A stretch of 36,367 nt of DNA from Chromatiales bacterium (lineage in GTDB: Bacteria > Pseudomonadota > Gammaproteobacteria > Thiohalomonadales > Thiohalomonadaceae), in NCBI GenBank assembly GCA_003251535.1, contig QKFD01000115.1, positions 1 through 36,367 on the forward strand, written 5' to 3'. Below are positions 17,170 through 36,367 of the stretch, in pieces (position 1 is the stretch's first letter; every line of letters begins with the position of its first letter). The position numbers and the translations under genes were made by a program. The notes under the pieces were generated by a model that saw only the letters and a program-made list of their open reading frames with translations, had not been told where the DNA came from and ran no database searches.

Positions 17170-17243
17170 CGACCTCTCCCACCGCTTGCGCTGCGCCGTC
17201 ACCGCCGGTAAGGTGGTGCGGCTCGTAAGAGCATCACAATCTA

Positions 17244-17388
17244 CTTATTCTCAGGGCAGGGTGAAATTCCCTACCGGCGGTAGTTCCGCTGCAAGGCGGA
17301 AGAGCCCGCGAGCGCCTGCGCAAGCAGGGTCAGCAGATCCGGTGAGAGGCCGGAGCCGACGGTGATAGTCCGGATGGGAGAGAATAAG
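17244..17388 (+). ncRNA. FMN riboswitch (RFN element) upstream of ribB
   Basis: The closing helix pairs cttattct (17244-17251) with agaataag (17381-17388). Inside are the conserved RFN blocks in order: tcagggcagggtgaaattcc, ctaccggcggtag, agcccgcgagcg, cagatccggtgagaggccgg, agccgacggtgatagtcc and ggatgggagagaa. This is a six-stem aptamer that binds flavin mononucleotide and represses the riboflavin gene downstream. The expression platform may include the strong hairpin at 17396-17421 and the ribosome site of ribB about 190 bases further on. Confidence 0.96.
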
Positions 17389-17395
17389 GCAATCC

Positions 17396-17575: not shown

Positions 17576-18241
17576 ATGAATCAGATCCACCCCACCTCCC
17601 TACTCAGTCGCTTTGGCCCACCGCAGATCCGCGTGGAACGCGCCCTAGAGGCACTCCGCAGTGGTAGCGGCGTGCTGCTGGTGGATGACGAAGATAGGGA
17701 GAACGAAGGGGACCTCATCTTCCCCGCCGAGAGCATCACCCCGCAACAGATGGCGCTGCTGATCCGCGAGTGCAGTGGCATCGTCTGCCTCTGCCTGACC
17801 GATGAGGCGACCCGCCGCCTACGGCTGCCGATGATGGTGAGCGACAACAGTAGCCGCAACGGTACCGCCTTCACCGTCTCCATTGAGGCGAAGAGTGGAG
17901 TCACCACCGGGGTCAGTGCCGCCGATCGGGTCACGACTATCCGCACCGCCATTGCCGATGGCGCCCAACCGGAGCAGTTGGCCCGGCCCGGCCACGTCTT
18001 CCCGCTACGCGCCCAGCCCGGTGGCGTCCTCACCCGCCGCGGCCATACCGAGGGGACCGTAGATCTCATGTCCCTGGCCGGCCTCAAACCGGCCGGGGTG
18101 CTCTGCGAGCTGACCAATCCAGATGGCAGCATGGCGCGCCTGCCGGAGATCATCGCCTTCGCCGAGCAGCACGCCATGCCGGTGCTCACCATTGAGGACC
18201 TGGTCACCTATCGTCGCCAGCTGATGGATACCGCCAGCTGA
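17576..18241 (+). CDS. ribB: 3,4-dihydroxy-2-butanone-4-phosphate synthase
   Basis: 221 residues from ATG 17576 with AAAGGAG eight bases upstream. The enzyme converts ribulose 5-phosphate to 3,4-dihydroxy-2-butanone 4-phosphate plus formate, a branch of riboflavin synthesis in the cytoplasm. The acidic loop '[19 protein letters not shown]' (~35-53) carries the metal-binding and catalytic acidic residues. '[20 protein letters not shown]', '[20 protein letters not shown]' and '[14 protein letters not shown]' are the substrate- and metal-site blocks, and 'EDLVTYRR' closes the fold. The length matches stand-alone RibB; there is no fused GTP cyclohydrolase II (RibA) domain. The upstream FMN riboswitch marks it as flavin-repressed. 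A GC-rich hairpin follows at 18247-18279. Confidence 0.97.
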
Positions 18242-33945: not shown

Positions 33946-34118
33946 TCACTGCGCGATGAGACTAAGCTCCGCGGACGCTACATTCCAGGGCAGAAGCGCT
34001 TCGAAGTCGGCGAGTGACTGTGCGGCGGGCAGCTCTTTGAAAAGCAGGCGGAGGTAGGCGTACGGCTCGATGCCGTTGGCCTTAGCGGTCTCGATGAGGC
34101 TGTAGAGGCGGGAAGAGC
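33946..34118 (-). pseudogene. IS66-family transposase (TnpC), C-terminal remnant
   Basis: The minus-strand text 'SSRLYSLIETAKANGIEPYA' then 'YLRLLFKELPAAQSLADFEA' and 'LLPWNV' is the conserved C-terminal segment of IS66 transposases, which normally exceed 500 residues. Only about 57 residues remain, ending TGA at 33946-33948. The upstream edge, about 34112-34124, runs directly into Rhs-type sequence. The remnant is therefore fused to an Rhs pseudogene, and the catalytic DDE core is gone. Confidence 0.88.
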
Positions 34119-34400
34119 CCCCGGGTCCCGTATCTCCGTCAGGTAGTGGCCGCCGTCGTAGCCAAACCCCACCTCGCTGCCGTCCCACGCCCCGTTATAG
34201 AGGTAGCTCACCCGCGTCCCGACCGGGCGCCTCCAGCTGGGTGATGCGGCCCGCGCTATCGCGCGTGAAGCGCACCCACTCTCCGCTCCCCGTGTGCTCT
34301 ATCCCCTCCGCCGTAAAGCGCAGGCTCTGGCCGCCCGGCTCGCTTATCTGCCGGACCCCATACCCCTCCTCAATCTCATAGGCCACCCGTTCGGCAACGA
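34118..34400 (-). pseudogene. Frameshifted Rhs/YD-repeat gene remnant
   Basis: Read on the minus strand, 'QSLRFTAEGIEHTGSGEWVR' and 'FTRDSAGRITQLEAPGR' are YD-repeat (Rhs) text. The frame then stops, but 'GTRVSYLYNGAWDGSEVGFG' and 'YDGGHYLTEIRDPG' continue in another frame. One extra base near 34218-34222 would account for the break (APG-GTRVS). The left end is cut by the IS66 remnant; the right end fades out near 34390-34400, where the opposite-strand symE gene begins. It is a displaced piece of an Rhs polymorphic-toxin gene, in the same orientation as the larger Rhs gene at 35449-36367. Confidence 0.75.
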
Positions 34401-34425
34401 GGGGGAGTCCTTCCCGACGCGGCGT

Positions 34426-34626
34426 ATGCAGGTGAGGGCGGGGCGGTATGAGTCCCCCTCCCGCCCATGCGATCCCCATCCCCGCTTTGGACGAAACATC
34501 AGCGTCCCCCAGCTCTATCTCAAGGGGCGCTGGCTGGAGCAGGCCGGTTTTACCCTCCATGCCCAGGTACGGATTGTCGTCTCTTGGGGACGCTGGGTGA
34601 TCGAGGTGCAGGGCACCGCCGAGTAG
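34426..34626 (+). CDS. symE: SymE-family toxin-like protein
   Basis: 66 residues from ATG 34426; the frame is open further upstream to 34294, but that part is antisense to the Rhs remnant. 'VPQLYLKGRWLEQAGFTLHA' is the hallmark of SymE, followed by the AbrB-like strand pattern 'QVRIVVSWGRWVIEVQG'. The N-terminal 'MQVRAGRYES' matches the short pre-strand of the family. In E. coli, SymE is an SOS-induced toxin of AbrB fold that affects nucleic acids and is held down by the antisense RNA SymR. A GGGGGAG lies about 20 bases before the ATG, rather far for a ribosome site. The stop is 21 bp before a bidirectional terminator. SymE-like genes are often found in Rhs neighbourhoods. Confidence 0.78.
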   Translation: MQVRAGRYESPSRPCDPHPRFGRNISVPQLYLKGRWLEQAGFTLHAQVRIVVSWGRWVIEVQGTAE

Positions 34627-34834: not shown

Positions 34835-35278
34835 CTACAAGCATGCCAATCGGCTAATATCATTTAACTTGTCCATAAAATCCCCATAAAATTCGATATC
34901 CGCATCAAAAAAAGATTGATTTTTGGCCACATACTCAATTGTTGGCATTAGCTCGGGCAGTATCGGCATAATAAATTCAGGGGACTGCGCCAACCTTTCC
35001 TTGATTAACTCTAAGAAACAGTCGGCGGATTCTGATTTAGTAAACTGATCAAAATCCCCCGCATCTATATATTCCTTGAGTCCGAAAATATAATAACAAA
35101 ATGGAATTATTGGCATTACCCCAAGATCTTCGCACCTCATCAACGCATTAATCTTGAACTCCCCCACCATTTCATCATTGCTTTTTCCAAAGAAAATCTT
35201 ATGCGCATACTTAACGTCTCTGTCCGCATTATCCATTATCCCCCAGTCGCTCTCTTTAGGTATATCTCTGGCAATCAT
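34835..35278 (-). CDS. Putative immunity protein for the adjacent Rhs toxin
   Basis: 147 residues from ATG 35278. No family is recognised. It is acidic, without signal peptide or membrane helix, and rich in helices: 'DEMVGEFKINALMRCEDLGV', 'SADCFLELIKERLAQSPEF' and 'DADIEFYGDFMDKLNDISRL'. The DNA is clearly AT-rich against the GC-rich core, as usual for exchanged immunity genes. It is the first gene downstream of the Rhs toxin C-terminus on the same strand, where cognate immunity genes sit, although the gap (170 bp) is longer than usual. It ends before the REP-like palindrome and terminator copy 2. The assignment is by position and composition, not by homology. Confidence 0.6.
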   Translation of the reverse strand: MIARDIPKESDWGIMDNADRDVKYAHKIFFGKSNDEMVGEFKINALMRCEDLGVMPIIPFCYYIFGLKEYIDAGDFDQFTKSESADCFLELIKERLAQSPEFIMPILPELMPTIEYVAKNQSFFDADIEFYGDFMDKLNDISRLACL

Positions 35279-35448: not shown

Positions 35449-36367
35449 TCAGCATGCCCAAACGTACCTTTTAATAAGGGCATCAATCATTCTGGTCAGT
35501 TTACTAATTTCCTGCTGATGTCTCCTGGGCCACCACTTATCATCCCACTGCTGCCTCATGTCTCTGCATTGCTCCCAGTGTTCAACTTCATTAATCATGT
35601 CTTGACACGCATCACCTGTAGGCTTCGGGCGTTGATTATCGCAGAAATCTTTATAAGCCTGATGCTCCGCATCTGCCTCTCTCTCTTCCTCTGCCGTTCT
35701 AGGTGGCTGAGGGCCGTAATAAACTGCATTAATCCCTGCCACCTCATGAGCTGCATATGCCACCAACACAGCCACGGCAGCATAGGCAACATGTTTAGAG
35801 AAAACTCTGGCAGAAACTCTACCACCGATGTTCAATAAAGCATTTTGTGCTTGCATCGTACTGACCAAGGTCGGGTCATTCCCGCCGGGGTCAATTAGGT
35901 CTGTCGGATTTAGAATGGCATATGCATATTTGTTGAGGGTGGCCGGAGAGCGCATATTGCCTCTCCACGTATCCATGGAAACAAATCTTCCCACTTGCGG
36001 ATCCACATATCGCGCCCGCAGGTAATACTGGCTCAATCGAGGCTCAAACGGCTCGCCGGTAAACAGATAGGCGTTAGCCGTCGAGCCAGTCTGTTCGGCG
36101 AACTCGCCAAAGGCCTTATAGGCGTAGGCGTCTGTCAAAGAACCCGCCGCATCGGTCAACGCACGGGTGGAGCTAAGGGCATCATAGTGGTAGTAGCTGC
36201 TCGCCCCCTCCCGCTCCTGACTCAGCAGGTCATCGCCATAGGTGTAGGCCACCTGTTCAATGCCGTCCGTGTACTCCCCCAGCACTTGGGCGTAGGCCTG
36301 GTTGGGGTCCACCAGGAATTCGGTGGTGCGGCCGTTGATAGTCCGGCGCTGGCGGATGCCCTGGCTA
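35449..36367 (-). CDS. Rhs-family polymorphic toxin, C-terminal part (5' end beyond the window)
   Basis: 305 residues are visible, entering from the right edge in frame ('RQRRTINGRTTEFLVDPNQA'). YD-repeat text 'YTYGDDLLSQEREGASSYYH' leads to the Rhs core box 'YLRARYVDPQVGRFVSMDTW' and 'TLNKYAYAILNPTDLIDPGG'. Beyond that box starts the variable tip (~145 residues): a hydrophobic stretch 'VAYAAVAVLVAYAAHEVAGI', then a Cys-rich helical end with 'YKDFCDNQRPKPTGDACQDM', 'HWEQCRDMRQQWDDKWWPRR' and a final 'KRYVWAC'. The tip is not a toxin family I can name, although paired Cys and a 'WD.KW..RH' word are typical of Rhs tips. DNA of the tip is AT-richer than the core, the usual sign of tip exchange. 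It would be exported, cleaved and delivered to competitors. Confidence 0.88.
   Translation of the reverse strand, partial: SQGIRQRRTINGRTTEFLVDPNQAYAQVLGEYTDGIEQVAYTYGDDLLSQEREGASSYYHYDALSSTRALTDAAGSLTDAYAYKAFGEFAEQTGSTANAYLFTGEPFEPRLSQYYLRARYVDPQVGRFVSMDTWRGNMRSPATLNKYAYAILNPTDLIDPGGNDPTLVSTMQAQNALLNIGGRVSARVFSKHVAYAAVAVLVAYAAHEVAGINAVYYGPQPPRTAEEEREADAEHQAYKDFCDNQRPKPTGDACQDMINEVEHWEQCRDMRQQWDDKWWPRRHQQEISKLTRMIDALIKRYVWAC

What the first reader, a model, noticed from the sequence alone, without database searches (positions are those of the whole stretch)
35449..35870. Rhs protein tip with an unrecognised Cys-rich toxin-like domain
Directly after the Rhs core box ending 'LIDPGG', the sequence changes to AT-richer DNA encoding a hydrophobic helix and a Cys- and Trp-rich helical end ('CRDMRQQWDDKWWPRRH'). 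Established knowledge: Rhs tips are toxins exchanged as cassettes with immunity genes. I cannot assign this tip to a known nuclease, deaminase or pore-former class. The hydrophobic helix could mean a membrane-active toxin or a translocation helper.
Basis: partly seen in the sequence, partly recalled or inferred. Interest (0 to 1): 0.65.

Follow-up and report, generated by a model that had tools for sequence, protein, structure and literature searches.

The report
Divergent Ntox16-like Rhs toxin tip
The end of this bacterial Rhs protein is a small three-helix domain that looks like a toxin, distantly related to a catalogued toxin family of unproven action, with its probable antidote gene next to it.

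Summary
The tip is real. After a canonical Rhs core box (TIGR03696, E 3.1e-16) the last 141 residues match nothing in Pfam or NCBIfam at E <= 10. All ten end an Rhs frame or remnant and have a same-strand gene next: ankyrin repeats in 7, a 146-147 aa helical protein in 2 (window and G791; E 5e-11), unclassified in 1. The conserved part is the last ~80 residues: AlphaFold gives a confident three-helix bundle; of nine alignable tips, 8 keep four Cys, 8 an Arg, 9 a His. A hydrophobic or Gly/Ala-rich linker of varying strength precedes it in the eight tips scanned. Profile comparison links the family to Pfam Ntox16 (score 28.2; 300 shuffles reach at most 16.2; reversed 20.3), carried mainly by two intermediate tips. 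The window tip has no Ntox16 match and lacks [DNE]xxH, so it is a divergent relative, not a member. Ntox16 is catalogued as a predicted metal-independent RNase; the one paper my searches found lists it in a table. Best reading: cytosol-acting toxin, perhaps an RNase, with 34835-35278 as immunity gene.

The parts
35881..36120 (-). Rhs-associated core domain (TIGR03696) of the Rhs fragment; the fragment runs off the contig at 36366
   Evidence: NCBIfam E 3.1e-16, residues 83-162 of the 305-aa frame
35449..35874 (-). Rhs C-terminal tip, 141 aa plus TGA stop
   Evidence: open frame; no library hit; nine other tips found
35449..35697 (-). Conserved domain: three-helix bundle (tip residues 61-80, 89-113, 120-140) with C78, C90, C103, C141, R107, W110, W114, H119
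   Evidence: AlphaFold pLDDT 79-96 by blocks over residues 61-141; alignment of nine tips
35722..35778 (-). Hydrophobic stretch of the tip (residues 33-51); recurrent in kind but not in sequence or position among tips; probably linker or translocation aid
   Evidence: hydropathy scan of eight tips from the core end; low-confidence region of the model
34835..35278 (-). Probable cognate immunity gene, 147 aa, probably helical
   Evidence: homologous to the gene behind the tip in G791, 27% identity, E 5e-11; G+C 0.39; helices only from a poor single-sequence model (mean pLDDT 51.9)
34195..34560 (-). Probable remnant of a further rhs fragment behind the cassette
   Evidence: weak RHS_repeat match, E 0.12; also 34119-34184, E 0.13
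33946..34188 (-). IS66 transposase C-terminal remnant
   Evidence: PF13817 E 7.4e-17

Best explanation
35449-35874 is the swappable toxin tip of a polymorphic Rhs protein, and 34835-35278 is its immunity gene. The working part is the C-terminal ~80 residues, a three-helix bundle braced by two Cys pairs (probably C78-C103 and C90-C141), with a conserved face C103/R107/W110/W114 on helix 2 and H119 just before helix 3. Shown by sequence: domain boundary, recurrence, adjacency to small partner genes, and at family level a distant relation to Ntox16. Inferred: the Rhs shell carries the tip to a neighbouring cell, the hydrophobic linker may help it across the membrane, and in the cytosol the Arg/His pair attacks RNA without metal, as Zhang et al. 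predict for Ntox16; the partner binds the bundle in the producer. Odds: toxin-immunity cassette about 0.9; relation to Ntox16 about 0.65 (lowered on re-checking for the competing weak hits and the reversed control); RNA as target about 0.4.
For: All ten tips end an Rhs frame or its remnant (TIGR03696 tested for the window only; Calothrix by its annotation, the rest by eye) and have a same-strand gene behind them: ankyrin in 7 of 10 (L004, L005, L020; L022, L031, L033, L049), window-type partner in 2 of 10, unclassified in 1 (L032). The window-type partner is rare: besides G791, a row of the query, 2 of 280 genomes match, so meeting it behind the G791 tip by chance is unlikely. Ntox16 link: L030 and L032 match PF15523 at E 0.023 and 0.012; in G791 and G1045 the only PF15523 match in the genome at E <= 10 falls on the tip; hhalign of eight tips with four Ntox16 sequences gives score 28.2, E 9.8e-5, against at most 16.2 in 300 column shuffles. 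Cys, Arg and His fall in register. Zhang 2012 lists Ntox16 as alpha-helical, 'R, [DNE]xxH', under predicted metal-independent RNases (PMC3482391).
Against: The window tip has no PF15523 match. Of the seven tip-bearing genomes given, PF15523 matched on the tip in two, only elsewhere in three (G763, G889, G1063) and nowhere in two (G000, G221). Unrelated helical models reach E values as good for other members: Pox_A11 0.0024 for L020, Seryl_tRNA_N 0.0038 for L031. Without L030 and L032 the profile score falls to 20.0 (maximum of 150 shuffles 17.7), with the four closest tips to 18.6 (18.4); the reversed Ntox16 alignment scored 20.3 against the eight tips, over 7 columns. So the window's own branch is tied to Ntox16 only through the intermediates. 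[DNE]xxH is in 3 of 9 tips, not the window's; L005 has Tyr for the Arg (read). The partner's family also occurs away from any Rhs tip (L069). No activity has been measured; fold searches gave only common helical bundles.
Confidence: 0.47

Rival explanations
1. Same cassette, but the domain is not a nuclease: a Cys-braced helical bundle that kills by binding and blocking a cytosolic protein, or by an unforeseen enzyme activity.
For: Small bundle without an obvious metal site; Cys1 and Cys3 are lost together in L049 while R, W and H stay, so Cys look structural; 7 of 10 partners are ankyrin proteins, a protein-binding repeat.
Against: R and H, in 8 and 9 of 9 aligned tips, look like a functional pair, and Ntox16 was placed among RNases.
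Confidence: 0.3
2. Membrane-active toxin working through the hydrophobic stretch.
For: A hydrophobic or Gly/Ala-rich stretch lies between core and domain in the eight tips scanned: best 19-mer 1.58 window, 1.97 L020, 1.29 L030, 1.03 L031, 2.0 L032, 1.62 L049. Weak hits: PF11647 Membrane Localization Domain E 0.24 on the window's last 83 residues, phrog_21992 esterase/lipase E 0.04 on residues 22-76. Odds raised from 0.10 after one search corrected a scan that had cut two tips short.
Against: The stretch is weak in L004 (0.87) and L005 (0.92, proline-rich) and does not align; low-confidence region in the model; partners show no evident signal peptide or membrane segment by eye.
Confidence: 0.13
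3. The tip is a decayed or orphan cassette with no present function; the neighbouring gene belongs to something else.
For: Rhs and IS66 remnants lie behind it; 170-base gap between tip stop and partner; no T6SS sheath gene VipA in the 95.6%-complete genome; the partner family also occurs without a tip.
Against: The frame is intact to a stop near the family's usual end, the conserved residues are kept, and the partner is homologous to the one behind the G791 tip.
Confidence: 0.1

Closest known systems
Ntox16 (Pfam PF15523; Zhang et al. 2012, PMC3482391)
   Same: alpha-helical C-terminal toxin domain found with Rhs repeats; Cys-x3-Arg and a following His in the same register, a closing Cys and a PPPxGD-C-like start by eye; cyanobacteria and beta/gamma-proteobacteria
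   Different: no match to the Pfam model for the window; lacks, by eye, an insert of about 30 residues with two Cys, and the CFRGGD motif (Trp in place of Cys); [DNE]xxH absent in the window; the Ntox16 partners seen are unrelated to the window's partner (hhalign prob 0.2)
E. coli Rhs locus annotated 'RHS element core protein', in part with an ankyrin gene under the match
   Same: the E. coli plasmid tip (L022) is 61% identical to the Diaphorobacter tip over 64% of it, in two pieces; its region matches 190 of 5426 E. coli genomes, all on chromosomes; of 15 rows listed 7 name O157 and 4 show an ankyrin gene
   Different: partner is an ankyrin protein, not the window's; chromosomal copies named only, not fetched
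Imm-ank immunity (Zhang 2012) and the ankyrin immunity protein Tli (PMC10294624, one passage read)
   Same: ankyrin repeat proteins as immunity; 7 of 10 tips have one
   Different: the window has an unrelated partner without Pfam match above cut-off
Tde5 with two unrelated immunity proteins (PMC13392607, abstract read)
   Same: precedent for unrelated immunity proteins against one toxin
   Different: Tde5 is a DNase with two independent immunity proteins; here each tip has one candidate partner, differing between genomes
Tse5, Rhs pore-forming tip (PMC10684867, seen in a search listing only)
   Same: Rhs tip; the hydrophobic stretch here recalls a membrane role
   Different: no sequence comparison was made

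Membership tests
Ntox16 (PF15523) | score at or above the Pfam cut-off (25 bits) | tested here: not met
   window tip no match; L030 15.4 and L032 16.2 bits
Ntox16 (PF15523) | alpha-helical domain | tested here: met
   AlphaFold three-helix bundle, high confidence for residues 61-140; a prediction
Ntox16 (PF15523) | conserved Arg | tested here: met
   R107 in the window and in 8 of 9 tips, aligned with Ntox16 R
Ntox16 (PF15523) | [DNE]xxH motif | tested here: not met
   H in 9 of 9, full motif in 3 of 9 (L030, L032, L033), not in the window
Ntox16 (PF15523) | RNase activity (predicted only) | not testable with these tools
   needs bench work
Rhs polymorphic toxin tip | follows the Rhs core box | tested here: met
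   TIGR03696
Rhs polymorphic toxin tip | core shared with other tips | tested here: met
   second fragment on contig C35, 72% identity over query residues 1-179, different tip; first 144 bases identical
Rhs polymorphic toxin tip | adjacent immunity gene | tested here: inconclusive
   adjacency and homology support it; neutralisation not tested
T6SS-delivered Rhs effector | PAAR or other N-terminal T6SS domain | not testable with these tools
   5' end lies beyond the contig
T6SS-delivered Rhs effector | T6SS in the genome | tested here: not met
   no PF05591 VipA match at E <= 0.01 in G000, 95.6% complete; only this one T6SS gene was sought

The most novel reading that the evidence does not exclude
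A separate toxin family, outside Ntox16: a Cys-braced three-helix mini-toxin with a new target, for which unrelated immunity proteins (ankyrin repeats, the window-type helical protein, and a third unclassified one) have been recruited independently.
Probability: 0.3. Interest if true: 0.6.

Novelty: new variant of a known kind. Interest (0 to 1): 0.42.

Why it matters
It gives an unannotated Rhs tip, a relative of which is present in E. coli, a family, a boundary, candidate functional residues and a probable immunity partner, so it can be tested at once. It also points to Ntox16, a family listed in 2012 for which my two searches found no other paper, and shows one kind of tip paired with unrelated partner types.

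Tried and rejected
Scans of viral contigs with A2, with the Diaphorobacter tip and with an Ntox16 piece found no relatives; phages none with the window's domain or the Diaphorobacter tip. A search of 398 genomes of the phylum matched 3: G000, G563, G503. Rows dropped as chance: G563/L018 and G1046/L034 (match antisense to other genes), G119/L050 and G073/L051 (inside unrelated genes), G1183/L041 (unrelated gene); G503/L019 (E 0.0065, 33-aa frame) was not followed. PDB sequence searches gave nothing below E 0.38. Fold searches gave no Foldseek match at E <= 0.001 and VIA-align Z at most 8.3 among common helical bundles. The partner modelled poorly alone (mean pLDDT 51.9) and was not used for a fold search; Pfam gave it only TPR_CHK1 at E 0.086. 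Partners of Ntox16 are not related to the window's partner. PADLOC: no match. PHROGs: weak matches only, phrog_21992 esterase/lipase E 0.04 for the window tip, phrog_5105 E 0.071 and phrog_12824 endonuclease E 0.19 for L020. EHEC RhsG as the E. coli counterpart was considered: PMC7216683 (passages read) gives RhsG a metallopeptidase domain and has no 'ankyrin', so the locus name is left open. My first hydropathy scan began too late in L005 and L031 and made the hydrophobic stretch look absent there; one search replaces it. My note says 'mostly O157:H7'; the listing bears out 7 of 15 rows shown.

Full report
What is there. The window is contig C51 of a 4.63-Mb genome. At its right end an Rhs gene reads leftwards from the contig edge and stops at 35449. 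It holds an Rhs core domain (TIGR03696, E 3.1e-16) and then 141 residues with no match in Pfam or NCBIfam at E <= 10. G+C falls from 0.58 (core piece) to 0.48 (tip) and 0.39 (next gene), against 0.63 for the window. A second Rhs fragment, on contig C35, is 72% identical over residues 1-179 and carries another tip; the first 144 bases of both fragments are identical. This fits tip exchange as described by Jackson et al. (PMC2935791, passages read).

Relatives. A tblastn search of plasmids gave a Calothrix tip and a weak E. coli hit; a class search of 369 genomes matched G000 and one other, G221; a phylum search of 398 genomes with a three-tip profile added nothing that held up; the genome-contig scan gave Diaphorobacter aerolatus and the G221 contig again; the Diaphorobacter tip matched the E. 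coli plasmid at 61% identity over 64% of it. A profile of four tips in 349 genomes of the Diaphorobacter family matched 6 genomes, of which 5 were kept (Diaphorobacter itself, G791, G889, G1045, G1063) and one rejected. G1063 scored only E 5.6e-4 and is interrupted; the ankyrin gene behind it is why I kept it. A profile of eight tips in 239 genomes of the window's class matched 5, of which 3 were kept (G000, G221, G143). Ten tips in all, counting the window's; nine could be aligned, the E. coli one being interrupted in that record. The E. coli tip region matches 190 of 5426 E. coli genomes, all on chromosomes; 15 rows were listed, 7 naming O157.

Anatomy. In the nine aligned tips C90, H119 and C141 never vary; C78 and C103 are in 8 of 9 and are both missing in L049; R107 is in 8 of 9, W110 and W114 in 7 of 9 each (read). 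The joint loss of C78 and C103 suggests pairs C78-C103 and C90-C141 and argues against catalytic cysteines; this is inference from one sequence, and the model's coordinates could not be measured. AlphaFold, given three sequences, gives helices 61-80, 89-113 and 120-140 with high confidence, and pLDDT under 50 for residues 1-53. Measured from the core end, the best 19-residue hydropathy of eight tips is 1.58 (window), 1.97 (L020), 0.92 (L005), 0.87 (L004), 1.29 (L030), 1.03 (L031), 2.0 (L032) and 1.62 (L049): a hydrophobic or Gly/Ala-rich linker recurs, varying in sequence, place and strength.

Partners. Behind the ten tips lie ankyrin genes in 7 (Pfam), a window-type protein in 2, and an unclassified protein in 1 (L032; no Pfam match). 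The window's partner and G791's are homologous (27%, E 5e-11). A two-sequence profile of them matched 3 of 281 genomes: G791, which is a row of the profile; G882, with no Rhs tip beside it and fused to DUF7684; and G990 at a contig edge, so untestable. The window partner is closer to these last two (36-37%) than to G791's, so the partner family is not exclusive to this tip; cognacy is likely, not proved.

Relation to Ntox16. Two tips match PF15523 weakly on their own, E 0.023 and 0.012; E values this good also arise with unrelated helical models, Pox_A11 0.0024 for L020 and Seryl_tRNA_N 0.0038 for L031. More telling, in a whole-genome search of nine genomes, seven of them with a tip, the single match at E <= 10 in G791 and in G1045 lies on the tip; in G763, G889 and G1063 the matches lie elsewhere (one of G763's is a true Ntox16 piece), and G000 and G221 have none; one of 14 control genomes rang, below the cut-off. 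Four Ntox16 sequences (Bosea, Cupriavidus, Acetobacter at 56-75 bits; Diaphorobacter at 37 bits), aligned, compare with eight tips at score 28.2, E 9.8e-5, probability 58%; 300 column shuffles reach 16.2, the reversed alignment 20.3 over 7 columns. With nine tips the score is 28.4; without the window 28.8; without L030 and L032 20.0; with the four closest only 18.6 (maxima of 150 shuffles: 18.9 for nine tips, 17.7, 18.4). The two reduced scores do not exceed the reversed control of the eight-tip set. So the tie to Ntox16 is good for the family and carried by intermediates for the window's branch. Cut-off and [DNE]xxH are not met, helical fold and Arg are; I therefore do not file it as Ntox16 but as a divergent relative that may work like it.

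Function. Zhang et al. list Ntox16 under predicted metal-independent RNase toxins, with no immunity partner given (PMC3482391, parts of one section and passages read). Searches for Ntox16 and PF15523 found no other paper in the held library. I recall, without a call, that the neighbouring entry Ntox15 was later shown to be a DNase, so such predictions are soft. Partners without an evident signal peptide (by eye) point to a cytosolic target. Export: no VipA in the genome; another Rhs fragment of this genome, on C1, begins with what looks like a signal peptide (by eye), so a Sec route is possible; it was not shown to belong to this gene.

Changes made on re-checking. The claim that the hydrophobic stretch is absent in two tips was wrong and is withdrawn; the odds of the membrane rival rose from 0.10 to 0.13. 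The competing weak Pfam hits, the matches of PF15523 away from the tips and the reversed control are now weighed; the odds of the Ntox16 relation fell from 0.75 to 0.65 and of the whole reading from 0.5 to 0.47. The rarity argument for the partner no longer counts G791, which is part of the query.

Noticed in passing
window 17243-17389 (+): FMN riboswitch (RF00050, 118.6 bits) ahead of the frame 17576-18241, which looks like ribB by eye.
   Followed up: no
L003 6188-7871 (contig C35): Second Rhs fragment of the genome with a different tip and a 162-aa frame behind it; neither was identified.
   Followed up: no
window 33946-34560: Probable Rhs remnant and an IS66 transposase C-terminal remnant behind the cassette.
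   Followed up: partly
L069 3700-4605: Window-type partner domain fused to DUF7684 (E 9.3e-46), with no Rhs tip beside it; a possible double immunity protein.
   Followed up: partly
L035 1501-1662 (-): Orphan Ntox16 piece in the same Diaphorobacter genome, downstream of an Rhs frame with another tip.
   Followed up: partly
L049 2807-3073: Tip lacking Cys1 and Cys3 together; hints at the Cys pairing.
   Followed up: yes
L022 2438-3926: E. coli plasmid record in which the tip frame is interrupted, with an ankyrin gene behind.
   Followed up: no
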